A DNA stretch of 43,076 nucleotides, from positions 1-43,076 of the forward strand of contig CAMCYK010000022.1 of the NCBI GenBank assembly GCA_945883695.1, in the 5' to 3' direction. This document shows, in pieces, positions 9,635 through 32,600 of the stretch. The translations under genes were made by a program, and so were the position numbers. Within the stretch, counting starts at the first letter, position 1. Each line of letters starts with the position of its first letter. Origin of the DNA: Akkermansia muciniphila. GTDB taxonomy: Bacteria > Verrucomicrobiota > Verrucomicrobiia > Verrucomicrobiales > Akkermansiaceae. A model generated the notes under the pieces. It saw nothing but the letters and a program-made list of their open reading frames with translations, ran no database searches and was not told the DNA's origin.

Positions 9635-9682
9635 GAAATTGGATCTGGAGTTTTAGGGAGTCCGCGAGGAATTGCCAGCGCT

Positions 9683-10279: not shown

Positions 10280-10337
10280 GATGGGAAAGCGAATCGGAGA
10301 GTGGGCGAATCGTTGGTGTGAATTTTCCTGACAGGAG

Positions 10338-15171: not shown

Positions 15172-15359
15172 AGATCGGTTACTTCATGAGCGCCGACAGC
15201 GTGAAATGGCGGCGGCCGGTGCTGCCGGGAGACACGCTCCACATCGAGGCGGAGGTCATCAAGATCCGCGGCTCGATCGGCCAGACCCGCTGCCGCTGCT
15301 TCGTCGGGAACGAGGTGGCTTCCGAAGCCGAGCTCAAGTTCGCCCTCGTCCAGCAGTAG
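15172..15359 (+). pseudogene. Truncated duplicate of the fabZ 3' end
   Basis: These 188 bases match 13545-13732, the last 61 codons of lpxC-fabZ, with six differences. Five are synonymous and the sixth swaps the TAA stop for TAG, so the 61 encoded residues are identical. The copy starts after the catalytic His343 and Glu357, so it cannot be an active dehydratase alone. It is open upstream to 15021 in the same frame, giving a possible 112-residue fusion whose first half is unrelated. A copy of the palindromic repeat follows 29 bases after the stop, as it does after the parent gene. Confidence 0.93.
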
Positions 15360-15387
15360 GCGGGGTTTGGGGAATCGGCGGAGCCTT

Positions 15388-15498
15388 TGGACTGCGTGCA
15401 GCCCGCTGCCGCTTTCCGTCCGCCAGCCTGCTGGCGGGACCGGCCCGACTCCACAGCAGGCTGTGGCAACAAAGCGGCAGCCGGCTGCACGCAGTCCA
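15388..15498. repeat. Palindromic repeat, copy B
   Basis: The outer arms (15388-15415 and 15471-15498) pair at 27 of 28 positions. Two further perfect hairpins lie inside (GCCAGCCTGCTGGC and CCACAGCAGGCTGTGG). It has the same plan and nearly the same sequence as copy C at 28968, including paired substitutions that keep the stems. It lies between the fabZ fragment and the convergent end of the giant-protein operon. Confidence 0.9.
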
Positions 15499-15513
15499 TG
15501 GGCGACGGTGCCG

Positions 15514-18500
15514 TCATTTCAGCCCCAGCCGGACCCGCCAGAACTTCGCCCGCGCCGCGCCGGGATCGAGCGTGATCCGGTGCACCCCGGCCCCGAGGTG
15601 GGGGACCCGCACGCCGGTGTCACCGAAGCCGGTCGCGAGGTTGTCGGACTGCTGGACATGGAAAGCCACCTGGTCGGCATAGGCGGCGGGGAACTCGAAC
15701 TCGACCACGAAGGTGCCCGGCACCGCCGCGCCCGAGATTTCCAAAACCGGCGGTCCGAGGTTCACCGGACCGCCGGGCGGCACCGACAGCGGGTCGACCG
15801 GATCGGTGCCCGAGAGATACTCCTGCAGGTCGCTCGCCCCGTCGCCGTCGCTGTCGCCGAAGGGCCCGGCGACGACCGGAAACAAATCCTCCCAGCCGTC
15901 GCCCAGCAGGTTGTTGTCGAGATCGACCGGCCCGGACGGGAGATGGGTGAGCGACAGCGTGATCACCTCGAGAGCGGAGGGGGCGTGCGGCGAGCTGACA
16001 TCGGAGAAGCCGGTCACGGTCAGCTCCGCTCCCACCGGCAGGGCGGTGAACTGCGACAGCGGCCACGGCTCGCCGTTGCCCTGCAGCAAAACGTGCGGGG
16101 CGATGCTGCCCAGCTCACGCACGACCGGCACGGGGCCGGCGAACGTCGCGGCATCGACCACGAACACGCCGGACCGGGTCGGGCGGGACGGCGGCAGAGC
16201 GAGCAAGGAGGCGATCGCGCCGTGGGCCTCGGCGACCTGGGCCGGGGTGAGCGTCAGGTTTCCCCAGTAGCTCAGCGTTTCGCCGGGATCGAGCACGCCG
16301 TCCTGATCGCTGTCGCCCGGCAGGCGCGCGCCGCGCAGGAAGGCGCGCAGGGTGTCCACCGGCGAAGGGAACTGCGGCAGGGCCTCGTCGTTGGCCGCGG
16401 CGCTGAGGAAATACAACTCGCGGGCCAGCTCGACCAGACGCGCCGCGGCCGGCGACGGCGGAGCCGCCAGCGCGGCGGCGAGCGCGGTCCGGATGTCTCC
16501 CGCCTTCCAGCCCTGGCTGTAGGTGAAGGCGGGCGCTTCGCCGGCATAGCGGCGCAGGCGGTCCATGTCGCCGGCGGAAAGTCGGCAGACCGCGTCGGCC
16601 GGAGCCCCCGCCGCCTCGTCCAAGGGGAGCGTGCTCTCGGTGGACCGGAACGGGGTCAAGGACAGGGTTTGTCCAGCCCCGAGCTCGCCGCGCGCCCGGA
16701 GGATCTCCTCATACTTGAGCTCCACCAGCAGCAAAGCGAGCGTGGTGGTCGCGTCGAGCGTGTGAAGGATCGATGGCTTCGACTGGGCGTAGTGGATTTT
16801 GGCGGCATCGATCCAGCCGGTGGCGGCGTTTGCCAGCGGGCCGCCCGGGTAAACGAAGGGCACCGGCCCGAGGTCGGAGAACGGCACCGGGATCAGGCCG
16901 ACCAGCTCGCGGCCGCGCCGCTGCTCCGGGGCCACCAGGCCGGCGAGATTGAAATTCGCGTCGCTGCCGGCGACCAGCAGCGACCCGGCGAAGCCCGCCT
17001 GGATGTTGCCGATCCGGGCGTGCTGGGGAGCCGAGCCGACGGTTGGGGCGAGGCCGAGCTGGATCCCGGAAGGCTCGTGCAGTCCCACTCCGGCGGCCAC
17101 CGCGCCGCGGGTCGCGTAACGGGCACCGCCGTCGATCGCCAGCGGCGTGATCCGGAAGTTGAAGGTGTTCAGGTAGTTCCCCTTGAACTGCGGGTCTCCC
17201 GCGGGAGGTCCGTCGATCCGGGTCGGCGAACTGCCGGTCTGGGTCGGACTGGTTCCGCTGAGGATTTCGAGCAGGTCGCTGGCCCCGTCGCCATCGCCAT
17301 CGTCGCCGCTGCCGACCGGATCGAGGCCGAGCGCGATTTCGACGTAGTCCGGCACGCCATCGCCGTCGCTGTCGAGGGTGTCGGGCGGCTCGGCGAAGGT
17401 GTAGGAGGCCCGGTAAACCGGGGTGGTCAGGCCGCCGCCGCTGCCGTACCACTCGATGGTGAAGGCGTCGAACTGCCAGCCCGGGGGCTGCGCCACCAGC
17501 GACACCCAGCTCCCGCCGCCGATCCGCCAGAAGACGCTGACGCCGGGCGGGATCGTGAAACGCGGACGGATCGCGCGCAGCATCCGGCCGGGGGCGGGGT
17601 CGATGGTCACCTCGCCGGTGGTCCGGCCCAGCGCGGCGGTCGGGCCGTAGGCCGAGGCGTAGCTGGCGACTCCGGGCTGACCGGAGGGGATCTGGTTGGT
17701 CATCACGTGGGTGGTGCCGGCCGGGGCGCTGCCGAGGACCACCGGTTGGAACCCGCCGAGGCCGTCGGCCGGCCCGGCGAAGCGGGCCTGGCGGGCTTCG
17801 AGATTGCCGCCGTTGAGCGCGCCATCCCGCGTCCATTCGCCGGCGGAGAAAGACCCGAGCAGCACGGCGTCGGTGGCGATGAAGGGATCCTTGTTGAAAG
17901 CGAACACGTTGGAGGTCGCCCGGCCGGCGCGGAGTTCCGGGAGCTCCGAGATCCCGTTCGCGGCGTGACTGCTGCCGTTCCAGGTGAAGCGGTGGGCGCG
18001 GGTCAGCGGCAATCCCCGCGGCCCGGCGAGCAGGTGAAAATCGCCCGGCCCGCTCGCGAAGACTCCTTGGAAAATGCCGTCCGCCGGGGCCGCGAAGGAT
18101 TCGCCCGGCACCGGCGCGGACTGGCCGTTGAAGGCGAACAACTGGGCCCAGCCGGATTCGAAGACCACCAGCAGGTTCCAGCCACCGCCCGTGGCGGCGA
18201 CCGCGGTGACCTGCTCGACCGCCTCGCCCGCGTCGGCCAAGGGCAGCGCGATAAAGGCATTGGCCGCGCTCAGCGATGCCAAGTAGAGGGTGGGTGAGCC
18301 GCGACGAAAAAAGACGAACTGCGCCGGCGACGTGGTGGCGGCTCCGTCGAAGTCGGCATGGACGAAGTGGGAGCCGACCGGCAGCCCGTTGAGCGAGGCG
18401 AGCACCTGGACCGGCGTCGTGCCGACGCGCAGCACGCGGAAACCTTCGACCAGCAGGGTTCCGTTGAAGGACCCGACGGCGGCGGTCGCCATCCCTTCCA

Positions 18501-19080
18501 GCCGGCGCGGCCGGAGTTCCAGCTCCGCGACCGGCGGCGCGGGCGCGGCCGGCACAAAGACCTGCGGGACCACCGGGCTGCCGCTGAAGCGGACGAAGGC
18601 CCGGCCCTGCGGGACCGTGCCGTTTTCCGTATGATGGAGCACGATTTCCTCCAGTGCGGTCCCGCCACTCACCTGCGCGGCGGCCACCCCGGTCGGGCCG
18701 ACCGGCGGAGAGAAGACCGACAGCGGGACCGGCACCGCGGCCGGATTGGCGAAGTCGAAGAGATTGGTGCGGTTCGCCCAGGTGCCGGTGACCGCCAGCG
18801 CGTCGCGCCCGGCCAGCAGCAGCCGGCCGCTGGCGACGCCGGTGGCGGGCGAAATCCCGCTGTGGTGACCCTGGCCCCAGCCGAGGCTGCCGTCGGCCGC
18901 GACCCGGGCGACCCGGACCAGCCCGGTCGACCGCTCGACCACCGCCAGGTCGGCCCGGCCGTCGCCGTTGAAGTCGCCGCGCGCCAGCAAGGCGTGGCGC
19001 AACTCGTGGGTCGAGTCCGCGGCGGTGGCCAGCCCGCAGGCGGCGAGCAGGGCGGCGGCATGCTGGACGACGGTTTTCAT
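15514..19080 (-). CDS. Giant secreted protein with FG-GAP-like and DxDGDG repeats (third gene of the operon)
   Basis: A 1188-residue exported protein. It has a signal peptide (cleavage about TAADS, residue 21) and an FG-GAP-like Ca-binding motif at about 35 (RGDFNGDGRADLAVVE). A beta-propeller-like region follows to about 480. Thrombospondin type 3-like Ca motifs occur at about 570 (DSDGDGVPDYVEIALG), 595, 922 (DSDQDGVLDPGE) and 1074 (DSDGDGASDLQEYLSG). The terminal module ends FWRVRLGLK, a tail type common on verrucomicrobial secreted proteins. The part at about 620-900 is partly helical and unrecognised. Its ATG overlaps the stop of the preceding gene (ATGA), so translation should be coupled. 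Its role is unknown; extracellular binding or assembly with its two operon partners is the simplest reading. Confidence 0.85.
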   Translation of the reverse strand: MKTVVQHAAALLAACGLATAADSTHELRHALLARGDFNGDGRADLAVVERSTGLVRVARVAADGSLGWGQGHHSGISPATGVASGRLLLAGRDALAVTGTWANRTNLFDFANPAAVPVPLSVFSPPVGPTGVAAAQVSGGTALEEIVLHHTENGTVPQGRAFVRFSGSPVVPQVFVPAAPAPPVAELELRPRRLEGMATAAVGSFNGTLLVEGFRVLRVGTTPVQVLASLNGLPVGSHFVHADFDGAATTSPAQFVFFRRGSPTLYLASLSAANAFIALPLADAGEAVEQVTAVAATGGGWNLLVVFESGWAQLFAFNGQSAPVPGESFAAPADGIFQGVFASGPGDFHLLAGPRGLPLTRAHRFTWNGSSHAANGISELPELRAGRATSNVFAFNKDPFIATDAVLLGSFSAGEWTRDGALNGGNLEARQARFAGPADGLGGFQPVVLGSAPAGTTHVMTNQIPSGQPGVASYASAYGPTAALGRTTGEVTIDPAPGRMLRAIRPRFTIPPGVSVFWRIGGGSWVSLVAQPPGWQFDAFTIEWYGSGGGLTTPVYRASYTFAEPPDTLDSDGDGVPDYVEIALGLDPVGSGDDGDGDGASDLLEILSGTSPTQTGSSPTRIDGPPAGDPQFKGNYLNTFNFRITPLAIDGGARYATRGAVAAGVGLHEPSGIQLGLAPTVGSAPQHARIGNIQAGFAGSLLVAGSDANFNLAGLVAPEQRRGRELVGLIPVPFSDLGPVPFVYPGGPLANAATGWIDAAKIHYAQSKPSILHTLDATTTLALLLVELKYEEILRARGELGAGQTLSLTPFRSTESTLPLDEAAGAPADAVCRLSAGDMDRLRRYAGEAPAFTYSQGWKAGDIRTALAAALAAPPSPAAARLVELARELYFLSAAANDEALPQFPSPVDTLRAFLRGARLPGDSDQDGVLDPGETLSYWGNLTLTPAQVAEAHGAIASLLALPPSRPTRSGVFVVDAATFAGPVPVVRELGSIAPHVLLQGNGEPWPLSQFTALPVGAELTVTGFSDVSSPHAPSALEVITLSLTHLPSGPVDLDNNLLGDGWEDLFPVVAGPFGDSDGDGASDLQEYLSGTDPVDPLSVPPGGPVNLGPPVLEISGAAVPGTFVVEFEFPAAYADQVAFHVQQSDNLATGFGDTGVRVPHLGAGVHRITLDPGAARAKFWRVRLGLK

Positions 19081-22000
19081 GGGTTCGTGGAGATTTCCAC
19101 CTCACCGGCGGGGATGACCGTGCGGATCTCGCCGTTGTTGCGGAACACGACGAGCAGGTAAGCGTAGCGCGCGCCGACCGTGACCGGCATCGAGTCCATC
19201 AGCCAGATGTCGAAAGGGAGGTCGAACCCGACACCCGACGGACCGCCGGCGGAGGTCACCGCGATGAAGGGGTCGTAGATCCGCACGCCGTTGCAGCTGG
19301 ACAGCGGGGTGGCGACCGGGGTCTCGTAGCGGTGGGCGATGGTTTCGATCAGCGGAGTGACCTGCACGATGTCGTTGGAGACCTCGTCGAACAGCGCGTT
19401 GGCGACCTGATAGCGGTAGAGCATCGCGGGCAGCAGCCGCGGCGGCGGCGGCACGCCGGGGGACTCGGTCCAGTCGCCCAGGGTGAACACCCGGGTCAGC
19501 GGGTCGATGTTGCCCGGCAGCGCGAACACCGGATTGGCCGGATTGAAGCTGGCGGGATCGATGGCGCAGACGCGCGGCCCGAAATCCTGGCCGATGCGGA
19601 CGCCGACCCGCTGTAAGTTCAAGTTCGGCAAGACGGTCGGCAGATACTTCGCTTCGATCCGGGAATCCCAGTTGATCGGTTTGGTGCCCGGCGGCAAGGG
19701 GCGGGCGGGCCATTTGACTTCCGGCAGGACGACCACCTCCGGCGACTGCCAGACGAAATCCACCACGTTGCTCATCGTGCTTTTCAGCCCGTTGGTGCCC
19801 ACCGCGACGATTCCGACGTGGTGCAGCGCGTCCACCTCGATCTCATCGAGGATCAGCGTGAACTCGGGACCGTTGTGGGTGAGGGTGTGACCGACCACGC
19901 CGGTTTGGTAGCGCTTGCCCGCCTTCACGATCAGCGGCCCGTCGTCGTCGCCGGGAATGGTCAGCAAGCACGAACCGACCTGCTCGAGACCGGCCGAGAG
20001 TCCGGGCGGCGGCGGGCCGGGAACGCGGGTGACCTTCACCTCGAAGCGCTCGACCCCGACAGTCGGGCAGAACCAGCGCAGCCGGGCTTTTTTCACGCCG
20101 CCGATCTCGAGCGGTTGGATCCGCGCGACCACCGGCGTTTGCGGCGGCTTGCCGGTGAACTTGACGCAGCCGAGGTCCTTCACCGGGCCGCCGTTGCCAT
20201 GCTCGTCGAAGTACTGGACGAAGTAGCAGACCTCGCCGCCGACCGGCGAAAAGACCGGGTCCTGCAAGAGCAGGAACTGGTTGGCCGCCGCGGGCGGCCC
20301 CAGCAGCCCCTGCCGGATCAAGGTCAAGGGACCGCCGTCGATGGTCCGGTAGAGCCGCCATTCGCGGGAGCTGACGGCAAACTCGATCTGGATTTCGATC
20401 GGGTTGATATCGCCACCCTCCTGCGGTGCCGCCTCGTGGGTCCGGCACGGCTCGTCCTCGAGGCGCAGGGTGACTCTGCGGCAATCCCGGTTGGCGATGA
20501 AGGATCCGACATGGTAGAACCTCGGCAGCAGGTCGGCGATCGGCACCTCGGCCACCGCCGATTCGCGGCCGTCGCTCTGGATCACCTTGCCGCGCAGGAA
20601 GAAAGTGCCGCCGTCCCCCGCGGGTCTCGGGATCGAGGTGTTCAGCACCAGCAGTTCGGCCGGATTCGCCGGGAAATCCGCGGTCGCGATCGGATAGGTC
20701 CGTTCGTTCTTGATGTCCTCCAGCCAGAACTCGACCGTACGCAATTCGGCGGGCTCCTCGCCGGTGCGGGCGACGTCGAGTTTGAAATACAACCGCTGGG
20801 GGTCGAAGCTCGCGGGGCCGCTGGTGGTGGATTGGCCGCGGACCGGGGTCAGGGTCGGGGTGCAGCAGCGGAACGCGAGGCTGCCACCGCCGTCGAGCGG
20901 TGCCACCCGGTCGCGCAGCACGCCGTCGGCCGGCGCGCTGTGGGGCGAGAAATTCCCGCCGCAGACCGAGTCGTCCACCGCCACCACGGTGTACCAGATG
21001 GTCCGCCCGGCATCGTCGCCGGCGGCGGCGAACTGCGGGTTGGCCCCGATTCTCGGCGAGTGCAGCGGATCGGCGTTGTCCACCACGGAGAGGGGCTTGC
21101 CGGGCTCGGTGTGGGCGATCGGGCCCGCCACCAGGTGCTCGGCCGGCAGGCTCAGCGGATCGAGCAGCTCCGCCTCCCGAAAATCGGGCAAGGAGCGCCA
21201 GCGATAGACGAAGTACGCGACGGCACCGTCGGTCGCCGGGAGCTGCTTCCAGGTGACGCGCAAGCGCTGGTCCGACGTCTGGTTCGCGTTGTTGAAGACG
21301 AAATCATTGGTCACGCGGACGCCCTTGACCGCGTTCGGCGGGTCGCGGTCGCAGATCTTGACCAAAGTCCCGCAGGACGGGCTGCCGCGGCGGCCGAGCA
21401 GATCCTCGCCGGCGACGTAGTAGTAGTATTCGGCACCCGCTTCGAAGGTCTCATGGACATCGATGCCGTTGCCCTGCTCGTCGAGCTTGAGACCGTTGTG
21501 GCGGTTGTCGTCCTGGGTGTAGAAATCGAGGTCGCCCTTGATCCCGTCGCCCTCGTCGAGGTCGAAGTCGGTCACCTCGGTGTTGTTGTAGAAGCGGCGC
21601 GGCAGGATTGGCAGGCGGTTGACCTGGGCGACCTGGGGGAAGCCGCTGGCGACCTCTTCGTCCCAATCGACGGTCGCCAGCGCCGGCGGGGCCGGGCAGC
21701 CGTGCCAGCCGCGGGCCTCGGCGTAGGCGCGGGTCACCCGGTAGACATGGAAGCCGCGCAGCAGCAGCGATTGCCGCCGCAGCAGGTCGGGCGAGGCCCA
21801 GCGCAACTTGACATTGAGATGGTTGGTCACGTCGCCGGCCGGCAGCGCGTCGCCGCCGCGGTCGGCGCTCGGCACCACCACCGGCGCGCCCGGCGCGGCG
21901 AAGGCGAAAGGTTGTCCGGCAGTGACGGTGATGCGGCCGACCACCGCGCTGAATTCTTCCGACCCCGGCGGTTTCTCGCGCAGCTCGAAGGTGCTGACCC

Positions 22001-22529
22001 CGTTGTGGATGCGGGCGGCGAAGCCGGTGCCGAGCGACAGTGCGACGCCGGGATGGGCGCGCCCCATGAAGACCAGCATCTGATAGACCCCGTCGTCCTG
22101 CATCGACTGCGCGGTGAGCGCGCCCAGCATGTCGGGGACCGGCACGCCGGCGTCCGGATGGAGCTGGTCGAAGTAGGCTCCGATCGCCTCCTGGAGCTTG
22201 GCCTGGTCCTGGCCGAGGTGGCGCGAGCGCTCGAACATCGCTGTCACCGCCGCCGGGTCGGTCTGCGGCCGGACCGTGCCGAGGTGGCGGAATGGCAGGG
22301 CGTCGTCGGCGCCGCCATCCTTGACATAGACCGCGTGCGGCCGGTCGCGCAGCAGCTCCGGCTTGGAGGCAAGCCACGAGAGATAGCCCCAGTGGCTGCC
22401 GTCGAGCGGGCTCTGGATGGTGGTGCCGACCACCACAATCGTCGGCTCCGGAGCCTGGGCGCGGAGCAAGGCGGCGCAGGCCGGAAGGACGGCGAGCGCG
22501 GTGAGAAGGCGGCGGAGCCAGCGGTTCAT
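19077..22529 (-). CDS. Giant secreted Fn3-like protein (second gene of the operon)
   Basis: A 1150-residue exported protein with signal peptide MNRWLRRLLTALAVLPACAA. A unique N-terminal module (about 27-190) with mixed alpha/beta character follows (TIVVVGTTIQSPLDGSHWGY; GVYQMLVFMGRAHPGVA). After it come several beta-sandwich domains resembling fibronectin type III, for example at about 400 (VKGVRVTNDF...LRVTWKQLPATDGAVAYFVY). Paired cysteines in several domains suggest disulfides. No enzyme motif, membrane anchor or sorting signal is visible. An in-frame ATG at 22550 would overlap the upstream gene; 22529 is chosen for its signal peptide. It starts 13 bases after the first gene's stop and ends in an ATGA overlap with the third gene. 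Confidence 0.83.
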   Translation of the reverse strand: MNRWLRRLLTALAVLPACAALLRAQAPEPTIVVVGTTIQSPLDGSHWGYLSWLASKPELLRDRPHAVYVKDGGADDALPFRHLGTVRPQTDPAAVTAMFERSRHLGQDQAKLQEAIGAYFDQLHPDAGVPVPDMLGALTAQSMQDDGVYQMLVFMGRAHPGVALSLGTGFAARIHNGVSTFELREKPPGSEEFSAVVGRITVTAGQPFAFAAPGAPVVVPSADRGGDALPAGDVTNHLNVKLRWASPDLLRRQSLLLRGFHVYRVTRAYAEARGWHGCPAPPALATVDWDEEVASGFPQVAQVNRLPILPRRFYNNTEVTDFDLDEGDGIKGDLDFYTQDDNRHNGLKLDEQGNGIDVHETFEAGAEYYYYVAGEDLLGRRGSPSCGTLVKICDRDPPNAVKGVRVTNDFVFNNANQTSDQRLRVTWKQLPATDGAVAYFVYRWRSLPDFREAELLDPLSLPAEHLVAGPIAHTEPGKPLSVVDNADPLHSPRIGANPQFAAAGDDAGRTIWYTVVAVDDSVCGGNFSPHSAPADGVLRDRVAPLDGGGSLAFRCCTPTLTPVRGQSTTSGPASFDPQRLYFKLDVARTGEEPAELRTVEFWLEDIKNERTYPIATADFPANPAELLVLNTSIPRPAGDGGTFFLRGKVIQSDGRESAVAEVPIADLLPRFYHVGSFIANRDCRRVTLRLEDEPCRTHEAAPQEGGDINPIEIQIEFAVSSREWRLYRTIDGGPLTLIRQGLLGPPAAANQFLLLQDPVFSPVGGEVCYFVQYFDEHGNGGPVKDLGCVKFTGKPPQTPVVARIQPLEIGGVKKARLRWFCPTVGVERFEVKVTRVPGPPPPGLSAGLEQVGSCLLTIPGDDDGPLIVKAGKRYQTGVVGHTLTHNGPEFTLILDEIEVDALHHVGIVAVGTNGLKSTMSNVVDFVWQSPEVVVLPEVKWPARPLPPGTKPINWDSRIEAKYLPTVLPNLNLQRVGVRIGQDFGPRVCAIDPASFNPANPVFALPGNIDPLTRVFTLGDWTESPGVPPPPRLLPAMLYRYQVANALFDEVSNDIVQVTPLIETIAHRYETPVATPLSSCNGVRIYDPFIAVTSAGGPSGVGFDLPFDIWLMDSMPVTVGARYAYLLVVFRNNGEIRTVIPAGEVEISTNP

Positions 22530-22542
22530 CGGGAGGAAGAGG

Positions 22543-25500
22543 TCAGACATCGACATCGAAATCACAGTCGGAATTGCGGCACTTCACGCGGACGCCGGCT
22601 TCGCCTTCGAAGCAGAAGAGGAAGCAGACTTCCACCCACAGGCGGCCCTTGCCCTTGAGCACGAAGTCGTTGCCGCTCTTGCCGCCGAGCAGGGTGATCT
22701 CGCCGCCGATCTCGGCGATGCAGATCACCTCGCCGACGATCTTGAGATACATCTTCCCGCCGAATTCCGGGCCCTCGACGAAGAGCCAGATGCCCGCGCC
22801 GACGGTGCCGGTCAGCGAGAGGAAACAGGTGCTCGGGATGCCGAGGATCTCGTTGAGCGGGTAGCTCATCTCACCGTAAACATAGCCACCGGTGAAGGGC
22901 GGATTGCCGAGGATCGAGGCGACGTCCTTGTCGACCAGTTTCAGCGGCGCCTTGTCGCAGGTGCGGCCGAAGAAGAACCCGACCTTGATCGCCTTCTTGT
23001 TGAATTCCGCGCGGGCCTTCGCGCCGACGTAGTTCTCCTGGGTGCCGAACATCGCGGTCGCGCCGAACTCGGTGAGCGCGAACTTCTCGAACTTCGCCTT
23101 GCCGCCCGCCAGTTCGATCGAGCCGCCCATGCCGAGCAGCACGCCGTCGTCGTCGAGCGTGCATTTCAGCCCGACGTTGAGCCGCATGTCGCCGAGCCAC
23201 TCGGCCTCGATGTTGTCGGCTCCCATCCTGACCTCGGTGTAGTATTTCCCGGGAGCGGTCCAACTGCACGCCTCGTCGCCCTCCGACTGGATGCAGTCGA
23301 TCTGAAGGTAGAAGTCGGCCTTCATCTCGCTCATCAGGTCGACGCGGGCCTTCATGTCGAGGCGCAGGGTCCGCAGCGTGTCGCCGTTGAGGCGGGCGTA
23401 GCCGTCGATGTCGGCGGCGCCGAGGCAGGACGCGAGGCCGTCGAGGGCGTTGGCGTAGGCCGGGTTGACGTCCTCGATCGATTCGGCCAGCACGTTGCGG
23501 ACGATGCGGTTGGCGACCTGGAAGCCGGAGTCGATGCGGGTCCGCGACTGGGCGTCGAGGTCGTAGAGGTACTGGCGCATCACGCCGAGCAATTGCGCGG
23601 TCATCGGCCGCGACATCAGCCGCGCGCGCAGGCGGTTGCGGACGCGGTCCTCGAAGGCGGAGCGGGGCAGCTGGTTGAAGTACTTGTTCGGCTCGCTGTT
23701 GACGATGGCCTGCATCTCGGCCTTGGCCTGGTTGGCAACGTACTCCGCTTCGCCCGCGACGTCACCGTCCACGATCACCTTGCGGAGGGCCTGGGAAAAT
23801 TCCCCGCTTTCATTGACCTGGCCCCTCAGTGTTTCCAGCCGGCCCTGGACCTCCTCCAACGCCGCCCGGACGTCGCCGAGCGTCGGCGCGCCGCGTTCGA
23901 CCAGGTCGGCGATCTTCGCGTCAAGCAGCGGGCCGGCGAGCTGGGCGACGATCGCCCCGGCTTCCGGCGAGCCTTGCTGGACCAGGTTTTTGACGAGTTG
24001 GCGGGTGACCGAGTAGTTGTTGGTCGCGAGGAACAGCCCCTGGCCGCCGGTGTCGGTGGCGAGCACGTCCAGCGCTTTCACCGCCTGATCGAGGGCGGTC
24101 CACAGCTTGGCCCGGGTGGCGTTGAGCAGGGTCAGGTTCTCGCCGCTGATCGTGGCGGGGTTGACACTGAGCGTCGTGGACGCGAGCCGGCCATCAATCT
24201 CGGTATCGAAGTTCGCGATCACCCCGCCGGCGGCTGCGGGCCAGGGGTCGGGACCGTTGTAGGCGGTCTTGAGTTCATCGTACGCCTCCTTGAGCCGCGG
24301 GTTCACGGCGTTGGTGATGAAGTGGTCGGCGAACAGGTCGAAGCGGTCGCCGGTGACCTGGCCGAGGGAGGCAAGGCCGCCGGTGAGCTGGTCCATCCGG
24401 GAATTGCCGAGCACCCCGGCGACGAGATTGCGGAAGCCGCCGGCGGCCGGGGTGCCCGCGACGGCTTCATCGACGAAACTGAACGCGCTGTTGGCGAGGC
24501 TCAGCGCGGGCAGGCCGGCATGGCTGACGCCGAAGGTGATGTCGGCGTGCTGGGGGCTCATCCGGTCGAGCTGGTGGGCGACGTTGAAGACCAGGATATC
24601 GTCGGTCTGCGGGGCGCTGGAAGTCCACACCCGCGGGCCGGAGAGGAACTCGATGGGATATTCGAAGAACTTGTCCTCGTTGAGGAAGCCGCGCCGGGCG
24701 TAGACGCGGTATTGGCTGAAGGGGTCGAGCGACGGCTCCGGACCCGGCGCGGGCAGGCGGTCGGCACCTTCGTTGCGGTAGACCGCGAGGTTCAAGCCGG
24801 GCGGGTAGGCGCGGTGGTCGGAATCGAAGAGCGACGTGGAGAAGAAGGTCTTGCCGGCCGCCGTCCAACCGCCCATCAGATGGAGCCGCGACGGCAGCGC
24901 GCCGGCCGGCGGATTGATCGGTTTGGCAAAGGTGTGGAGGTGGACCTGGAGGTCTTCGAAATACGGGACCGCGACCCGCGCGGCGAACGAGAGGAAGCCG
25001 ATCGGATCGGGCGAGGTCAGGGCTTTGTAGGAATTGAAATAGGCCTCGCTGGCGGGGGTGGCGGGGTAGGTCTCGCTGCCCGGACCGACGATCGCCAGGC
25101 TGGCCGGCAGCGGGAAGCGCGAGGTCACGCTGTAGTTCGGATCCGAGCGCGGGACGATGGTGCCGTCGGCATACCAGCCGACCTTGCCTTCGAGCGGCGC
25201 GGGGAGGTGGTGCGCCTGGGTTTGGATGATCATCGCCAGCACGGCGTCGCCGCCGGGCGAGCAGCCGTCCTCCTTCTGGATCTCGAAGCTGAAGGGCTCG
25301 AACTCCGCCGCCCAGTAGTCGAGGGTTTGCGGCTCCCCGTCTTCCGGGATCTTCGCCTCCTGGAGATCGCCGAGGCAGGTCAGGATCAGCTCCTCGAAGG
25401 GTTGGACGAAGTTCGACGGATAGGGGACCACGATCTGGCCGAGCGTGGCGGAGGACACGTTCTGGGTCTCGCGGAAGCCGAAGGAGAAATTCGCGAAACT

Positions 25501-28044
25501 CACCGGGAAGCCGTAGAGCACGAAGTTGCCCGGTGTTTCCGCGGCGTCGTGGATGCCGGCGTTGCCGCTACGGCGGACGTAGTACTTCGAGCGGGCCTTG
25601 AGCGGATAGTCCGGGGTCTGCGTGTTGGCGACGATCGAGCGGGCGGTGATGGCCTGGCTCTCGCCGCCGGCGCGGAGGTTGATGCCGGCGTAGTCGGCGT
25701 TGCCCGCGGCGTAGGCGGCGCTGCCCGGCCGCTCGGGCGTGGCGGCGGGATTGGCGGCGTGGAAACCGGTGTTGTGGACGATCCCGGGCCGTTCCTCGAG
25801 CGGGGCGGAGGAGGCCGCGGCCCGCAGGAAATGGCCGGTCGCGTGGAAGGCACCGCGGGTGAAGCGCCGGAGGTGGGCGTGGGCGAAGCGCGGGACACCG
25901 CCGCTTTCGCTGATGAAGCCCCATTCGAGCCGGTTGGTGCGGTCGTTGACCTGGTAAATCGTGTCGAAATCGCCCGCCGCGACCAGCCCGCCGTCGCCGG
26001 TGAACAGCAGCCGCTGGTTGTCGGGCTTGAGCCGGAAGGTGCCGAAGCGCGGGGTCACGCCGACGCATCCTTGCTGGACGCAAGCCTGCTGGTAGGTGAG
26101 GGAAATCGAGGTGACCCCATCGAGCCGGCTGTCGGCGGCCGCGGGCGAGATGGCGTCCTCCTTGATCGTCACCTGTCCGCCACTGGAGGCCACCCGCGCG
26201 TCATACGGGAAGTGGGTGCGGAATTCGACCGGGCCGATCACGAAGCCGGCGGTCAGATGGGCCCCAAGGTTCGCGCCGGAGGTGGTGATCGTCGCGCCGG
26301 GCGAGATCAGGCCCTCGACCTCGGAGTAGTAGCGTTCGTTCGAGCGCTTGATCTTCTGGGCGTCCGGCACCGGTGCCCCGTCGAGCCAGGTCATTTCCGC
26401 GGCCTGGGTGTAGGTGGTGGTGCCGGTGGTGGCCAGGTCGATCCTGCCGTCGGCACGGACCCAGGTGAACTGCGAGACCTCGATCTGGACCGGCTTGGTT
26501 TCCTCCGCGACATGCAGCGGATTGGCCGGGGAGTAGGTGAGCTGGGCGGAGAGCGGGCGTAGCGAGGCCGAGAGCTGATGGACACCGACCGGCAGGAAGG
26601 GGATCCCGAGCTTGCCGTTGGCGGTGCTTGTCACCGTCATCCCGGCGGGCAGCAGCACGGCCAGGGAGGCCGAGGCACCGCCGGTCGACAGGGTGGTGCC
26701 GACGCGGAGGAACGCGATGCCGTTCTCGCGGTCCTTGTCCGGGGAAGTCGGGGCGGTGACCGGCACGGTGGCCGCCGGGTTGTTGTAAACCGCCCGGCCG
26801 TCCGGCAACAGCCGCAGCGGCAAGGCCGAGCCATCGCCGTAGGTATGGCCGTTGTTCGGCGCGGCGAGCCGCCCCATCACGATCTGCGGCGAGCACAGCA
26901 CCGACGGGGCCGGGCTGCCGGCCTCCAGGAACGATCCGCCCGCCGGGTCGCCGGAAATCTCCTCGATCGTGGTTTGCACCAATCCGAAATCCAGCCGGCC
27001 GTTGAAATGGAGCAGCCGCAAGGTCGGGGTGCCGGTCGTGTTCGACTCCACCGGCCTGGCGGGCGCGGCGAGCTCGCGGTGGGAAAGGGTCACCCGGGCG
27101 TAATAGGTATCACGCGAATCGAGCTGGGACACCGGCCGCAGGAGCAACGAGGCACTTCCACTGACAACTACCGGTGCCCGCGGCGTGCTGCCGGATTGGT
27201 AGAACGGGACCGCGACCGCGGTCTCAAAACCGGGGTCCGCCACCAGTGGAACTTCGACATCGTCCGCCCCGTCCTCGCGAAACAATTGCACCGACCACAC
27301 GATTTGCACCGGCGTCGCGTCGGTTGCCGAGCCGGAGTTGTAGTTGTCATATCGCCGGAGCTGATACGGGGCGGAGATCAGGAAGCCCTTCTGATCCGGG
27401 CTCGAGGTGATGGCAAAACGCCGGGAAAACGACGCGGAACTGGCCATCCGGGCGATGACATTGCGGGCGGCGTCGTTCGAAACGGTGTTGGTGAAATGAT
27501 AGAAGCGGCGGAACAAGGACGATTCCGGGTCGCCGAGATTGAGATAGCCGGTGAACAGGATGCTGATGTTCCAGCGCTGGACCTGGGCTTGGATCCGGTA
27601 GGTCTTATTGGAATCGAGCCGGGTCGCGGGCTTCGGCCGGCCGGTGAAGGTGACGCTCGACGGCAAGGGCTGGCCGCCGCCGCCGATGGGATTGATCGAG
27701 GCGAAGGAACTTGGCCAAACGATCTCGTTGGAGTACTGGCTCGAGGGTACCAGCGCGACCTCGACCCCGTCCGCATCGAACATCCGGAAGCCGACCCGGA
27801 AATCGCGGATCGGTTCGGTGATCGGGGTGCCGGTGAGCCCGACCGTCACCGACACCGGGATCGCATCGCGGTCGAAACCGGCCGCGGCGTTGGACGCATC
27901 CGAGTCGATCACGTAAACCCCGCCGGTGTAAGTCACCGCGGTGATGTCGGCAACCGCGGCCCGGACGACCGGCGCGAACGATAGCAACACCGTCGCGAAA
28001 AAGGCCAACGGACGCTTCCAAGGCGGTGAAGTTCGGATTTGCAT
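22543..28044 (-). CDS. Giant secreted protein, 1833 residues (first gene of the operon)
   Basis: I do not recognise this family. A signal peptide ends about VVRAAVA (residue 31). Residues about 30-1200 are beta-rich, with an internal duplication: LDSNKTYRIQAQV at about 145 recurs as LDSRDTYYARVTL at about 311, each closing a similar domain. Residues about 1240-1560 are helical with coiled-coil character (LGDVRAALEEVQGRLETLRG). The last 270 residues are strongly beta, with long strands of alternating polarity and many glycines (VGAGIWLFVEGPEFGGKMYL). They end in a Cys-rich tail (VCFLFCFEGEAGVRVKCRNS, then DCDFDVDV). The C-terminal sheets could be a barrel or a lipid-binding fold; neither is proven. 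It leads the three-gene unit behind a run of eleven C. Confidence 0.82.
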   Translation of the reverse strand: MQIRTSPPWKRPLAFFATVLLSFAPVVRAAVADITAVTYTGGVYVIDSDASNAAAGFDRDAIPVSVTVGLTGTPITEPIRDFRVGFRMFDADGVEVALVPSSQYSNEIVWPSSFASINPIGGGGQPLPSSVTFTGRPKPATRLDSNKTYRIQAQVQRWNISILFTGYLNLGDPESSLFRRFYHFTNTVSNDAARNVIARMASSASFSRRFAITSSPDQKGFLISAPYQLRRYDNYNSGSATDATPVQIVWSVQLFREDGADDVEVPLVADPGFETAVAVPFYQSGSTPRAPVVVSGSASLLLRPVSQLDSRDTYYARVTLSHRELAAPARPVESNTTGTPTLRLLHFNGRLDFGLVQTTIEEISGDPAGGSFLEAGSPAPSVLCSPQIVMGRLAAPNNGHTYGDGSALPLRLLPDGRAVYNNPAATVPVTAPTSPDKDRENGIAFLRVGTTLSTGGASASLAVLLPAGMTVTSTANGKLGIPFLPVGVHQLSASLRPLSAQLTYSPANPLHVAEETKPVQIEVSQFTWVRADGRIDLATTGTTTYTQAAEMTWLDGAPVPDAQKIKRSNERYYSEVEGLISPGATITTSGANLGAHLTAGFVIGPVEFRTHFPYDARVASSGGQVTIKEDAISPAAADSRLDGVTSISLTYQQACVQQGCVGVTPRFGTFRLKPDNQRLLFTGDGGLVAAGDFDTIYQVNDRTNRLEWGFISESGGVPRFAHAHLRRFTRGAFHATGHFLRAAASSAPLEERPGIVHNTGFHAANPAATPERPGSAAYAAGNADYAGINLRAGGESQAITARSIVANTQTPDYPLKARSKYYVRRSGNAGIHDAAETPGNFVLYGFPVSFANFSFGFRETQNVSSATLGQIVVPYPSNFVQPFEELILTCLGDLQEAKIPEDGEPQTLDYWAAEFEPFSFEIQKEDGCSPGGDAVLAMIIQTQAHHLPAPLEGKVGWYADGTIVPRSDPNYSVTSRFPLPASLAIVGPGSETYPATPASEAYFNSYKALTSPDPIGFLSFAARVAVPYFEDLQVHLHTFAKPINPPAGALPSRLHLMGGWTAAGKTFFSTSLFDSDHRAYPPGLNLAVYRNEGADRLPAPGPEPSLDPFSQYRVYARRGFLNEDKFFEYPIEFLSGPRVWTSSAPQTDDILVFNVAHQLDRMSPQHADITFGVSHAGLPALSLANSAFSFVDEAVAGTPAAGGFRNLVAGVLGNSRMDQLTGGLASLGQVTGDRFDLFADHFITNAVNPRLKEAYDELKTAYNGPDPWPAAAGGVIANFDTEIDGRLASTTLSVNPATISGENLTLLNATRAKLWTALDQAVKALDVLATDTGGQGLFLATNNYSVTRQLVKNLVQQGSPEAGAIVAQLAGPLLDAKIADLVERGAPTLGDVRAALEEVQGRLETLRGQVNESGEFSQALRKVIVDGDVAGEAEYVANQAKAEMQAIVNSEPNKYFNQLPRSAFEDRVRNRLRARLMSRPMTAQLLGVMRQYLYDLDAQSRTRIDSGFQVANRIVRNVLAESIEDVNPAYANALDGLASCLGAADIDGYARLNGDTLRTLRLDMKARVDLMSEMKADFYLQIDCIQSEGDEACSWTAPGKYYTEVRMGADNIEAEWLGDMRLNVGLKCTLDDDGVLLGMGGSIELAGGKAKFEKFALTEFGATAMFGTQENYVGAKARAEFNKKAIKVGFFFGRTCDKAPLKLVDKDVASILGNPPFTGGYVYGEMSYPLNEILGIPSTCFLSLTGTVGAGIWLFVEGPEFGGKMYLKIVGEVICIAEIGGEITLLGGKSGNDFVLKGKGRLWVEVCFLFCFEGEAGVRVKCRNSDCDFDVDV

Positions 28045-28050: not shown

Positions 28051-28061
28051 GGGGGGGGGGG
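28051..28061 (-). promoter_or_regulatory. C11 tract in the leader of the giant-protein operon
   Basis: Eleven consecutive G on the plus strand (C on the coding strand) end six bases before the ATG at 28044, where a ribosome-binding site would lie. Just upstream (28064-28082) is a small hairpin, TCACGG paired with CCGTGA. Long single-base runs change length by slipped-strand pairing, so this may tune expression. That function is inference; the tract itself is plain. Confidence 0.6.
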
Positions 28062-28173: not shown

Positions 28174-28830
28174 TCAGGGCTTCTTGACGTGACCGAAAGC
28201 GATCGGATTCGCGAATCGCGGATACTTGCAGTCCGTTTTGAAGCGGAACACGCCGAGTGCCGGCTCCGCGAGGTCGGACGGAGTGACATGCACGCGGTAT
28301 TCGGCGCCTTCCTTGACCGTCTCCAGCCGCACCGTGAAGCCGGGGCGGGAAGGTTCGACCGCGAGCAAGCGGATCGGGCCGTCGCCGTTCATGGTCACCG
28401 TGAACGTCCGCTCCGCCCGCGCCTCGCCGACGGTCCAGGCCGCGGTGCGCGGTTCGATGGTGATCAGTTCCTGCAACTCCACCGCCACGGTGAGAGCCAG
28501 GCTGCGGCTCTTGCCGTCCTCTTCCACCCGCACTTGCAGCGTCTTTTCGGTGACCCCGGGGAAATTACCGACCTTGAAAACCCCGGTGATCCGGTTTTTG
28601 CCGCCCGCTGCGATCGCTTCCGCCGGAAACTTCGCGTGGAGGCACTGGCATCCCGAGACCACGGTGACGATCCGCGCGCTGGAGGTGCCGCGGTTCTCGA
28701 ACTCGAACACCGCGTCGATCTGCTCCTGGTCCGGCTTGGCCTTGAGTTCGACGCGGGTCTTTTCGAAATGAAGCTCGGCGCGGAGGGGATGTCCCGCCGC
28801 CAGCAGCACCCCGGAAAAGACGGCGATCAT
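28174..28830 (-). CDS. DUF1573 secreted protein
   Basis: A 218-residue exported protein with a DUF1573 (Ig-like, MSP/ASPM-related) domain at about residues 20-110: [17 protein letters not shown], then [20 protein letters not shown] and [10 protein letters not shown] second beta-sandwich follows. A signal peptide is predicted at about 1-18 ([18 protein letters not shown]). The start at 28830 is used because the longer frame (to 29079) is read from palindromic repeat DNA. Such domains occur in envelope proteins of Bacteroidetes and PVC bacteria; the role is unknown. It precedes the giant-protein operon on the same strand by 129 bases. Confidence 0.85.
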
Positions 28831-28904: not shown

Positions 28905-28976
28905 CGCCCGGCATGGCGCAGCCCATGGACTGCGTTTCGTTTCGCCCGCCCGGCATGGCGCAGCCCATGGAGTGCG
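28905..28976. repeat. Tandem 30-base direct repeat next to copy C
   Basis: The segment 28905-28934 recurs at 28947-28976 with 29 of 30 bases identical (both contain GGCATGGCGCAGCCCATGGA). The second copy overlaps the left end of palindromic repeat C, so the first looks like the stub of another, mostly deleted repeat. It lies in the divergent promoter region of the DUF1573 and ferredoxin genes. Confidence 0.85.
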
Positions 28977-29078
28977 TGCAGCCCGCTGCCGCTCTCCTCC
29001 GCCAGCCTGCTGGCGGGTCGGGTCCGGATTCCACGGCAGGCCGTGGCAACAAAGCGGCAGCAGGCTGCGCGCACTCCA
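28968..29078. repeat. Palindromic repeat, copy C
   Basis: Arms 28968-28995 and 29051-29078 pair at 25 of 28 positions; two internal hairpins are conserved (GCCAGCCTGCTGGC and CCACGGCAGGCCGTGG). Compared with copy B, both partners of several base pairs have changed together. Unlike copies A and B it lies between two divergent genes. Confidence 0.9.
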
Positions 29079-29141
29079 CGCCCGCCGCGAGCCATGGTTT
29101 CGCGTGACGGCGGCCGTTCCGCCCGGTATCGCTGCCGCCCG

Positions 29142-29644: not shown

Positions 29645-32600
29645 TTACGGCGTCCGCAGGCGGACGAAGAGCCTCGCCGCCTGCGCCGGAATCGTGACGG
29701 TGACCGTTTCCGTCTCCCCATGGCCCGCCCGTTCGATCATCCCCGCGGTGGCGGCCAACCACGTCGGCGACGCGAGGTCGGACGAATATTCGATGACACT
29801 TCCGAGTTCCGCCTGAGCCGCCTTGTCGCGGGTGAACGTGAAAATGAAATTCGCGCCGGACTTCGCACCCGCGGGAAGAATCGCCAGATCCGCCGCTTCC
29901 GGATCCCCGCGCAGCAGGAACTCGAGCGCGTTCTCGACGCCGTCCCCATCCGGGTCGGCGGAGGCGAGCGCCGCCGGCCCCGCCAGCCCCGCGTCCCGCG
30001 CCCAGATCGCGAACCGGGTGGCGGTCCGGACCAGCAGCAGTTGGTTCGCTTGGAAATCCAGCGCATAACCAAATGGCATGCCAATCACGGCGGCGGGACT
30101 TCCACTACGACTGCCGTAGGTCGCGAGCACGTGGGACGGCACCGTCACCCCGCCGGCCAGCACCTTGAGATCGAGGGTCGAGCCGCCGAGGGTGAGCATT
30201 CCCGCGACATTCAGCCGGTCGGCTGCGGCCCCGTTGATCTCGACTTCCCAGGTCCCGCTCACGGTGACCGCCCCGCTGGCGGTCAGGATGCCAATACCAT
30301 TCCCCGGCGCCAACACGCCGGCCACCGCGGCGCTGGCAAGAGTGCCGCTGCCGCCGAGCCGGGTCCCTGCGGCGGCTTGGATCGCCGCTTGGGTGACATT
30401 CCCATCGACCCGCAGCGTCCCGCCGTTGAGGGCGATCGGATTCAGCACGCTCACGCTGCCGCCGAGCACCAGCGTGCCGGTGCCCGTCTTGCCGATCGCG
30501 CCGCTGCCGGAGATCGAGCCGGCGAAGGTGGAGGTGTCGCTGCGGTGGAAGAGCAGCGTGCCGCCCGGGTTGACGATCACGTTGCCGACGAGCGTGCCGG
30601 CGGTCGCGCCGGCGGTCGCGCCGTTGCCGACTTGCACGGTGCCGCCGTCGACGGTGGTGGTGCCGATGTGCAGGTCGTCGCCGCCGAGCACCAGGGTCGC
30701 GCCGCCGGACTTCGACAGCGCCGCCAGATCGGTCGGGCCGTTGATGCTGCTGTTGGCGGCACCGAGCACCACGCTCAAGCGGTGGTCGCCGGCAAGCGGG
30801 CCGTTGATCGCCCACGAACCGTTGTTCTGAGCGCCGATCGTGGCGGGCGAGCCGAGGGTGATCGCGCCGCTCAGCGTGATCGTCCGCGCCGTCGTGCTGT
30901 CGTGGTTGAGCGCGCCCGGATTGCCGCCGGCGATGCCGCCGCCGTTGAGGCGGAAGCCCGCCGGATAGGTCGGGCTGGCGGCGAGGTTGAACCAGCGGAG
31001 CTGCGAGCCGGACCGGACCTCGGCGGTCGAGCCCGCCCCTCCGAGCTCGCTGCCGCCGACCGCGCCGGTCGCGGTGTTGTAGGGCCGGACCTGGGCGTTG
31101 CCATCGATCACCAGCGCGCCGGAAAAGCTGGCATTGTCGCCGCGGAGGTGGAGCTGGCTGCCGGCGACCCCGCCTGTTAGAGCGAGGGTCGAGCTGCCGG
31201 AGAGCGGCGTGTGGATGAAAGTTACCGCGGCGTTCAGCACGAGGGCCGCTGCCGGCGCGAGCGGCAGCGGCCCGCCGCCGTCGAGAATGTAGCCGCTGGT
31301 ATTGAAGACCAGCCCGGCGATGCCCGTGAGTCCGCCGCCGACGCTCACCGTGCCCGCCGTGCCGCCGAACAGCGCGGTCTTGCCGGGCAGCCACGCCGTG
31401 GGACCGCTGCCGACCCGCCAGGTGGTGGCGAAGCCGTCCCAGCTCCCGCTGCCGCCGGGTGCCGCCCCGGGTTGCCAGATCAATTCGAGATTCGGCACCA
31501 GCGGGTTGGTGCCGTTCCGCACCTCCGCGCCGTCGGCAAACCCGTCGCCATCGGTGTCGGCCACGTCCGGGTCGGTGCCATGGCTGGCCTCGTCGTCATC
31601 CGGCAACCCGTCGCCATCGCGGTCGCCGGTGAAGGAGACGTTCGAGAACACCGCCTCGCCGCTGTCGTCGGTCGCGTGCGACGTGACGGCAAGCCCGGCG
31701 CGAACCGTCTCCGGCAGGTCGATCGACTGGGTCGCGCCGACCTGGGTCCAGCTGCTGCCGTTGGTCGAAAACGCCGCGGTGACCAGATTTCCGCTGCGCA
31801 GCAGCCGCAACTGCGGCGGCCAGGCGGTCGGTCCCGCCGCCCAGACATAACTCGCGGTGGCTCCGGCGCTGCCCCGCCAGATGAACTCGACCTGTCCTTC
31901 GGGCATCCAGTGGACCATCGCGAAGGGCGCGTCGGCGGCGGTGGTGGCACGCAGCATCAGGCCCGCCTTCGCGCGGTTGTGGGCGGCTTCGAAGCTGTTG
32001 AGCTTGGCGCTGATCTTGCCGTCGCCGGCCATCGCCTGATGGACGAATTGCAATCCGTCGGACGCCGTGCCGAGGTTGTTGCCGGAGCCGCGGACGATCA
32101 CCCGGCCGTCGGAAAGTCCGGCCTCGCCGGGATAGCCGGGGCCGATCTTGGTCGAGGTCCACGCCGCCGGCAGCGCTTCCAGCAGCAGGAAGTCATCGAG
32201 GTCCACGGCGGCCACGTTGCTGCCCGCGGCGGCGTAGGCATAGAGCGTGGCGGAGCTGCTGGCGGCGCCGGTGGTGAAGTGGTGGCTGCCCTTGGTCCAG
32301 TTGCCGCCGGCGCCGGTGACGGTGCTGAAGGCCTCCGCGCCGCCGTGGTTCTTCACGCCGAGGCGGACCGGCTGGCCGTTGCCCTTGGCCCACGCGCTCA
32401 CGGTGTAGGAAGTGGCCGGCTTGAGCCCGTGCACCGCGTGCTCGATCCCGCGGATCGCGGCATTTCCGTTCAAGCGGAAAGCGCTGGTGCCGCTGCGGCG
32501 GAAGGTCCCGCCCCAGCTCTGGACCAGGGTGTCGCCGTAAGCGGTCCAGTGGGTCGCGTCGCCGAGTTCGAAGCCGCCGTTGGTGACGCGTCCGGCGCGG

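What the first reader, a model, noticed from the sequence alone, without database searches (positions are those of the whole stretch)
15514..28044. Three-gene operon of giant secreted proteins of unknown function
Three consecutive minus-strand genes encode exported proteins of 1833, 1150 and 1188 residues, with a 13-base gap and then an ATGA overlap. Each has its own signal peptide, none has an enzyme motif, and their architectures differ: a beta/coiled-coil/beta protein with Cys-rich tail, an Fn3-like chain, and a propeller plus Ca-binding protein. Tight coupling of such different large proteins suggests they assemble into one surface or extracellular complex. I know no described system with this trio.
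Basis: partly seen in the sequence, partly recalled or inferred. Interest (0 to 1): 0.75.

Follow-up and report, generated by a model that had tools for sequence, protein, structure and literature searches.

The report
Conserved trio of giant exported proteins
Three very large proteins that look exported and have no known function are encoded side by side and are kept together in Verrucomicrobia and their kin, so they are probably parts of one unstudied cell-surface machine.

Summary
The three minus-strand genes exist as described and form a strongly conserved system. Among 97 genomes (window's included) A is in 27 and B in 26 of those; the odd one holds an A fragment at a contig end. In 145 genomes of the phylum, profiles of A's C-terminal module, B and C hit the same 7. 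Of 70 non-identical complete loci, 69 run A-B-C and one B-C-A, all on one strand; the gene trees largely agree. The 80 loci kept from a scan of 84,980 species carry Verrucomicrobiota/Kiritimatiellota names where informative. A matches no known family; B is marginally Fn3-like; C has TSP3 and weak FG-GAP repeats. In 8 of 70 loci a Ser/Thr kinase, five times with an ECF-type sigma gene, borders the trio. A congener lacks the trio at this site. Most likely it is a multi-protein surface-binding complex: the conserved system is well shown, but assembly, surface location and function are inferred.

The parts
22543..28044 (-). Gene A, 1833 aa exported protein, no known family
   Evidence: ORF and translation; no Pfam or NCBIfam match above cut-off; homologues in 27 of 97 genomes, own included
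27958..28044 (-). A: signal peptide (about residues 1-29), by eye
   Evidence: N-terminal sequence
24475..27957 (-). A: beta-type region, residues 30-1190
   Evidence: moment and propensity profile over a 36-row alignment
23365..24447 (-). A: amphipathic alpha-helical or coiled-coil region, residues 1200-1560
   Evidence: helical hydrophobic moment 0.84-1.34; generic coiled-coil matches in PDB sequences (best E 1.8e-4) and Pfam
22546..23364 (-). A: amphipathic beta C-terminal module with conserved cysteines, residues 1561-1833
   Evidence: beta moment about 0.9-1.3, Cys 1593, 1696, 1740, 1775, 1809, 1811 in over 70% of rows; 22-row alignment A7
19077..22529 (-). Gene B, 1150 aa exported protein, marginal Fn3 similarity (GTG start 12 codons upstream also possible)
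15514..19080 (-). Gene C, 1188 aa exported protein with TSP3 and weak FG-GAP repeats; ATGA overlap with B
18862..18984 (-). C: FG-GAP-like repeat, residues 33-73
   Evidence: Pfam FG-GAP E 0.0023, FG-GAP_3 E 0.021, both below cut-off; FG-GAP_3 in 16 of 25 members at E up to 5
17236..17379 (-). C: first TSP3 Ca-binding repeat pair, residues 568-615
   Evidence: invariant Asp columns in alignment A3; NCBIfam partial match 568-615
15781..15933 (-). C: second TSP3 repeat, about residues 1050-1100
   Evidence: Pfam TSP3_bac 1076-1097
28174..28830 (-). DUF1573 gene upstream of A on the same strand, 129-base gap; probably not a core part
   Evidence: Pfam DUF1573 E 1.2e-16; in the comparison of 193 neighbour genes a similar protein lies beside one other trio only, L046

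Best explanation
The trio encodes the three obligate parts of one exported, multi-protein surface-binding system of Verrucomicrobiota and Kiritimatiellota. Shown: the genes are present and multiplied together, nearly always stay adjacent, and have largely congruent trees. Inferred: all three cross the inner membrane by Sec. A (beta region, long amphipathic helix, amphipathic beta tail with conserved cysteines) is the scaffold. B is an Ig/Fn3-type rod. C, a Ca-stabilised FG-GAP propeller-type protein, is the ligand-binding head. They assemble at the outer surface and bind glycans, matrix or other cells. Paralogous copies within a genome give different binding specificities. In some lineages a membrane Ser/Thr kinase, with an ECF sigma factor, switches the operon on.
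For: Co-occurrence: A in 27 and B in 26 of 97 genomes, the same but one; A's C-terminal module, B and C in the same 7 of 145 genomes, five matches of each in one. Order: 69 of 70 complete loci A-B-C, one B-C-A, all on one strand. Trees: r 0.70, 0.69, 0.82 against a shuffled maximum of 0.24; 46, 42 and 44 of 67 splits shared. Some relatives carry modules that elsewhere bind glycans or proteins: LamG in 2 of 26 A; chitobiase-C-type in 2 of 25 C; Ig, cadherin-like and DUF5122 propeller domains in two long C. TSP3 in 22 of 25 C. Several divergent copies in one genome. Kinase, five times with an ECF-type gene, bordering 8 of 70 loci.
Against: No direct evidence of physical interaction, surface location or a ligand. 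No anchor or sorting signal was identified; the C-terminal 96 residues of C are not shared with other proteins of the genome. B's Fn3 assignment is marginal. One species, Roseibacillus persicicus, has an A apart from a B-C pair (L057, L058), although a full trio is there too (L059). Trio pieces on short contigs of G074, G080 and G092 were not all fetched, so adjacency was not checked for them. No kinase was found at the window's own locus or at 61 others of the 70. Tree congruence also follows from any operon inherited as a block.
Confidence: 0.42

Rival explanations
1. Structural role: the trio builds an extracellular layer, fibre or matrix (S-layer-like coat, stalk or biofilm matrix) and does not bind specific ligands.
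For: Large, Ca-binding-type exported proteins without an enzyme match; added Ig-type modules in two long C relatives.
Against: Patchy presence (27 of 97 genomes; 7 of 145 phylum-wide) and several divergent copies in one genome fit variable recognition better than a shared coat.
Confidence: 0.16
2. Co-regulated but independent: three separate secreted binding proteins kept in one operon for shared expression, with no common complex.
For: No interaction evidence; the profiles of A, B and C show no relation to one another.
Against: Every genome with one of A or B has the other, save G035 with an A fragment at a contig end, and A, B and C hit the same 7 of 145 genomes. One locus permuted the order to B-C-A and still kept all three adjacent (L050).
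Confidence: 0.16
3. Offensive or defensive weapon: a three-part secreted system against competitors or grazers, switched on through the kinase and sigma pair.
For: Two studied kinase/ECF pairs act in resistance to amoeba predation and to polymyxin (PMC13147305 abstract, PMC8999054 passages). A giant protein of another PVC lineage has been read as predatory (PMC12057145 passages).
Against: No toxin, Tc or defence family above cut-off in A, B or C of the window; in the relatives' shown lists only stray weak names, such as RHS_repeat at E 0.056 in 1 of 25 C (for A only the first 25 of 72 families were shown). A's C-terminus is conserved, not variable as in polymorphic toxins.
Confidence: 0.12
4. 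Carrier for hydrophobic or lipid ligands: A's amphipathic helices followed by amphipathic beta sheet form a lipid-binding cradle, with B and C as partners.
For: Strong helical then beta amphipathicity in A 1200-1833; weak apolipoprotein matches in 5 of 26 A members, best E 0.00055.
Against: Such helix matches are generic to coiled coils; no match of the C-terminal module to any solved structure by sequence at E up to 5.
Confidence: 0.08

Closest known systems
Bacterial TSP3 and FG-GAP surface proteins (e.g. MtsD and CglD of myxobacteria; their biology is recalled)
   Same: C carries the same TSP3-type repeats; MtsD (24.9 bits), CglD (8.4 bits) and the Amuc_1099 family (17.5 bits) are hit over those stretches only
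   Different: Far below the families' cut-offs (800, 400 and 50 bits); no match of A or B; no three-gene unit
Kinase-linked ECF sigma factor modules (ECF43 and other groups held to be activated by phosphorylation)
   Same: An intact-looking kinase with a hydrophobic segment borders the trio in 8 of 70 loci, with an ECF-type gene in five, as in the published PknS-EcfK and PknT-EcfP pairs (passages of PMC8999054)
   Different: The neighbour here is the trio, not a type VI secretion system or a resistance regulon; most trio loci, the window's included, lack the pair; ECF group not assigned; control of the trio not tested
Giant proteins of PVC-superphylum bacteria
   Same: Very large, partly exported proteins of unknown role in related phyla (passages of PMC12057145)
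   Different: Those are single proteins, said to reach tens of thousands of residues; this is a fixed trio of families of mostly 1100-1900 residues
Verru_Chthon four-gene cassette (recalled, not from a call)
   Same: A conserved gene cassette restricted to Verrucomicrobia
   Different: No model of that name among the NCBIfam matches of A, B or C at E up to 1; I did not check that the library holds those models
Tc toxin complexes (recalled)
   Same: Three large components, one with propeller-type repeats
   Different: No Tc or SpvB family among the matches of A, B or C

Membership tests
One conserved three-gene system (this trio) | A, B and C occur in the same genomes | tested here: met
   Same 7 of 145 genomes for A's C-terminal module, B (both E up to 1e-10) and C (E up to 1e-30); 26 of 27 A genomes also have B among 97
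One conserved three-gene system (this trio) | Adjacent, one strand, fixed order | tested here: met
   70 of 70 complete loci on one strand, 69 A-B-C, 1 B-C-A; L111 was scored BAC by an over-long ORF, but its B match (7635-10787) follows A
One conserved three-gene system (this trio) | Physical complex | not testable with these tools
   Structure prediction switched off
Fibronectin type III proteins (B) | Pfam fn3 domain | tested here: inconclusive
   6 of 37 members, best E 1.4e-5; none in the window's B
FG-GAP propeller proteins (C) | FG-GAP repeats above cut-off | tested here: inconclusive
   18.2 bits against 22.1 in the window's C; FG-GAP_3 in 16 of 25 members at E up to 5
Bacterial TSP3 proteins (C) | TSP3_bac repeat above cut-off | tested here: met
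   27.2 bits against 25 in the window's C; 22 of 25 members match at E up to 5
MtsD / CglD proteins | NCBIfam equivalog cut-off | tested here: not met
   24.9 of 800 bits and 8.4 of 400 bits
Verru_Chthon cassette | NCBIfam models of the cassette | tested here: inconclusive
   None among matches at E up to 1; not checked that the library holds these models
Tc / polymorphic toxins | Tc, SpvB or RHS core; variable C-terminal toxin domain | tested here: not met
   No Tc or SpvB match shown; RHS_repeat only in 1 of 25 C at E 0.056; A's C-terminus conserved; for A relatives 25 of 72 weak families were shown
Anti-phage defence system | PADLOC model match | tested here: not met
   0 families for the window's A, B and C at E up to 0.1
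Phage or plasmid protein | Homologue in phage or plasmid records | tested here: not met
   A: none in 50,697 phage and 72,556 plasmid records; B: none in plasmids; B in phages and C in either not tested
Kinase/ECF-regulated operon | Kinase or ECF gene beside the operon | tested here: inconclusive
   8 of 70 loci, not the window's own; four of the five ECF-type genes match sigma-70 Pfam families only marginally (one above cut-off), the fifth was called by blastp

The most novel reading that the evidence does not exclude
The trio is an undescribed class of extracellular machine of the Verrucomicrobiota/Kiritimatiellota lineage: a three-protein, Ca-dependent recognition complex that spreads between lineages as a roughly 13 kb unit, is diversified into as many as five copies in one genome for different targets, and in some lineages is switched on by a eukaryote-like WD40 kinase acting on an alternative sigma factor, for example on contact with grazers, algae or other cells.
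Probability: 0.2. Interest if true: 0.85.

Novelty: categorically new. Interest (0 to 1): 0.62.

Why it matters
Two of the three families (A and, in practice, B) have no counterpart that I could find in Pfam, NCBIfam, PADLOC or PHROGs, nor in PDB sequences beyond generic coiled-coil matches for A. Yet they go together as tightly as the subunits of known machines, across several orders of mostly environmental bacteria. The module types of C, and perhaps of B, are familiar; the system is not. If the trio is a surface-recognition complex, it gives a concrete handle on how Verrucomicrobia attach to particles or react to other cells, and it adds a possible output to the poorly understood WD40-kinase/ECF signalling of the PVC group. 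Named strains carry it (Luteolibacter marinus NBU1238, Roseibacillus persicicus KCTC 12988, Coraliomargarita sp. SDUM461004), so it should be testable.

Tried and rejected
Ideas rejected or set aside: (1) Mobile cassette bounded by special repeats: the repeats at both ends (15377-15507 and 28957-29087) belong to a palindromic element with 89 matches at some 45 places in this genome, so flanking by it is not by itself a sign of mobility. (2) Phase variation at a C11 tract 6 bases upstream of A: no relative has such a run within 50 bases of A's called start in the list, so it is only a lead. (3) Outer-membrane barrel for A's tail: many relatives end in an aromatic residue, but the strands look short by eye, so I did not adopt it. 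(4) Shared C-terminal sorting domain for C: no second copy in the genome. (5) tRNA-Phe reported inside gene C (18939-19030): taken as a false positive, not tested. (6) L090's 'kinase' lacks the catalytic motif and a clear membrane helix and was not counted. (7) My signal-peptide scorer is too permissive (105 of 181 controls).

Dropped rows and biases: L053 and L075 (B broken into two frames) and truncated loci were left out of the tree set; L057, L058 and L076 are not in the 70. The 70 loci were made distinct only by the last 400 residues of B, so close pairs remain (e.g. L043/L044, L067/L068, L092/L093). The 121 loci hold some places twice (unnamed and named record). Of 138 relatives only the best 80 were given. 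The kinase background (166 in 31.4 Mb) comes from five genomes picked because they carry linked or nearby kinases. Pfam for A relatives showed 25 of 72 weak families.

Full report
WHAT IS THERE. On the minus strand of the window lie A (22543-28044, 1833 aa), B (19077-22529, 1150 aa from its ATG) and C (15514-19080, 1188 aa). A and B are 13 bases apart; B and C overlap by ATGA. The N-termini read as signal peptides by eye; my crude scorer is not specific enough to prove it.

NO KNOWN FAMILY FOR A AND B. Pfam and NCBIfam at E up to 1 give nothing for B, one chance-level match for A (PI-PLC-C1, E 0.28, 10.7 of 29.9 bits), and for C TSP3 above cut-off and FG-GAP below it. Scanning family members at E up to 5: 26 A members give 72 weak families, of which 25 were shown, mostly coiled-coil-like, with LamG in two (best E 6.8e-25); 37 B members give fn3 in six, best E 1.4e-5; 25 C members give TSP3_bac in 22 and FG-GAP_3 in 16. 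Profile searches of PDB sequences find only generic coiled coils for A (best E 1.8e-4), nothing below E 0.1 for B and C, and nothing at E up to 5 for A's C-terminal module. PADLOC gives no match; PHROGs gives one chance-level match to C (E 0.057). A has no match in phage or plasmid records, B none in plasmid records. The profiles of A, B and C show no relation to each other.

ARCHITECTURE. Averaged over a 36-row alignment, A has beta-type periodicity from 30 to 1190, is strongly amphipathic-helical from about 1200 to 1560, and strongly amphipathic-beta from 1561 to 1833, with cysteines kept in over 70% of rows at 655, 660, 890, 928, 1593, 1696, 1740, 1775, 1809 and 1811, and no hydrophobic stretch that would suit a membrane helix after the signal peptide. 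Some relatives add modules that in other proteins bind glycans or proteins (recalled): LamG in A; chitobiase-C-type in two C; Ig, cadherin-like, DUF1573-type and DUF5122 propeller domains in two long versions of C.

THE TRIO IS ONE SYSTEM. Among 97 genomes (the window's own and 96 relatives), A is found in 27 and B in 26. The sets differ only by G035, where A is a fragment at a contig end. In a sample of 145 genomes of the phylum, B, the A C-terminal module and C were each found in the same 7 genomes, the window's among them, and one genome (G211) has five matches of each; in one of its five sets B and C lie on different contigs. Of 121 loci examined, 98 read A-B-C; of the other 23, 17 are cut by a contig end. 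The remaining six are a permuted B-C-A (L050); one species, Roseibacillus persicicus, with an A apart from a B-C pair (L057, and L058 = L082); L154, which ends at the contig end 113 bases after B; and L111, scored B-A-C through an over-long frame although the B match lies after A. After removing identical copies, 70 complete loci remain, all with the three genes on one strand. Trio pieces on short contigs of G074, G080 and G092 were not all fetched. Trees of A, B and C largely agree: distance correlations 0.70, 0.69 and 0.82 against a maximum of 0.24 in 999 shuffles, and 46, 42 and 44 of 67 splits shared. Congruence is also expected of any operon inherited as a block, so it supports joint inheritance, not contact.

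WHO HAS IT. A scan of one genome for each of 84,980 species with an alignment of B gave 138 confirmed relatives. The 80 kept have titles of Verrucomicrobiota or Kiritimatiellota (among them Luteolibacter, Roseibacillus, Haloferula, Prosthecobacter, Coraliomargarita, Opitutales, Pedosphaera, Limisphaerales, Kiritimatiellales), apart from one titled only 'Bacterium isolate'. The other 58 were not shown, so a wider range is not excluded. Contig lengths show that G012, of the window's genus, is Luteolibacter marinus. Presence is patchy and in several genomes multi-copy.

GAIN OF THE UNIT IN THIS GENOME. LpxC-FabZ is 79-95% identical between the window and 17 congeners, whereas the window's A is only 22-32% identical to the A copies of the same genus. 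Of eight congeners whose fabZ region I fetched (up to 20 kb each, one only 8.3 kb), none shows A, B or C there. In four (L158, L161, L163, L164) a ferredoxin-like gene (name by eye; no Pfam match) that lies beyond the trio in the window follows fabZ within 0.6-4 kb; in the other four it was not found. The closest case is G010 (L158), 0.6 kb. In the window the trio plus the DUF1573 gene sits between two copies of an abundant repeat element, next to a 187-base duplicate of the 3' end of fabZ (97% identical; 13545-13731 and 15172-15358). Inference: lateral gain as one unit; loss in the relatives is not excluded.

REGULATORY LINK IN A MINORITY. In 8 of 70 loci (L050, L054, L055, L056, L061, L063, L064, L131) a Ser/Thr kinase with the catalytic motif and a hydrophobic segment (weakest in L050) borders the trio, directly or across its ECF gene. 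At L063 the overlap shown comes from an over-long A frame; residue 30 of A maps near 15143 and the kinase starts at 15294. Pfam finds kinase and WD40-type propeller domains in the four of these scanned. The kinase lies directly upstream on the same strand, 57-68 bases away, in five (L054 and L055 are sisters). An ECF-type sigma gene is present in five: four match sigma-70 Pfam families marginally, one above cut-off, and the fifth was called by blastp. With 166 kinases in 31.4 Mb of five such genomes, about 2.4 would be expected in the 457,102 flanking bases examined, against 8 seen. The link is recurrent but modest, and absent at the window's own locus. Kinase-activated ECF factors are known (PMC8999054 passages; PMC13147305 abstract and outline), and WD40 kinases with a predicted periplasmic WD40 part are described in Planctomycetota (PMC11032199 passages, abstract included).

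INTERPRETATION. The data show a three-part system of proteins that look exported. The surface-binding complex is the best reading because the parts have no enzyme match, C carries Ca-binding-type repeats, some relatives add binding-type modules, and copies diversify within genomes. I give it 0.42; a structural layer 0.16, independent co-expressed proteins 0.16, a weapon 0.12, a lipid carrier 0.08. I rate the system as categorically new because A and B fall in no family I could test; C's modules, and perhaps B's, are of known types.

LITERATURE. Word searches of the open-access library found no description of this trio. I saw search listings, plus passages of PMC3482391, PMC8999054, PMC11032199, PMC12057145 and PMC4960237, and the abstract and outline of PMC13147305. 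Most subscription journals and all preprints are outside that library.

Noticed in passing
window 15377-15507 and 28957-29087: About 120-130 bp imperfect palindrome, repeated at some 45 places in the genome by my count of the list (89 matches counting both strands, 71-100% identical): an abundant REP- or MITE-like element.
   Followed up: partly
window 13545-13731 and 15172-15358: The 3' 187 bases of fabZ are duplicated (97% identical) just downstream of gene C; in congener G010 (L158) both window copies match one place and the trio is absent there.
   Followed up: partly
window 28051-28061: A run of 11 C on the coding strand ends 6 bases upstream of A's start codon; runs of 10 or more C occur at 24 places in the genome by my count. 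Possible slippage site; not seen in relatives.
   Followed up: partly
window 28174-28830: DUF1573 (HYDIN-type Ig-like) gene, exported by its look, same strand, 129 bases upstream of A; a DUF1573 domain also occurs inside the giant C of L131.
   Followed up: partly
window 29645-33814: 1389 aa protein with glycoside hydrolase family 16, CBM_4_9, TSP3 and a below-cut-off match to passenger-associated transport repeats, upstream of the trio on the same strand.
   Followed up: no
window 18939-19030: ARAGORN reports a tRNA-Phe on the + strand inside gene C; probably a false positive.
   Followed up: no
L131:13405-23358: A C-type frame of at least 3318 aa (it runs to the end of the fetched stretch) with twelve DUF5122 propeller stretches, HYDIN/ASH-type Ig and cadherin-like domains: C can grow into a giant multi-module protein.
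   Followed up: partly
   Followed up: no
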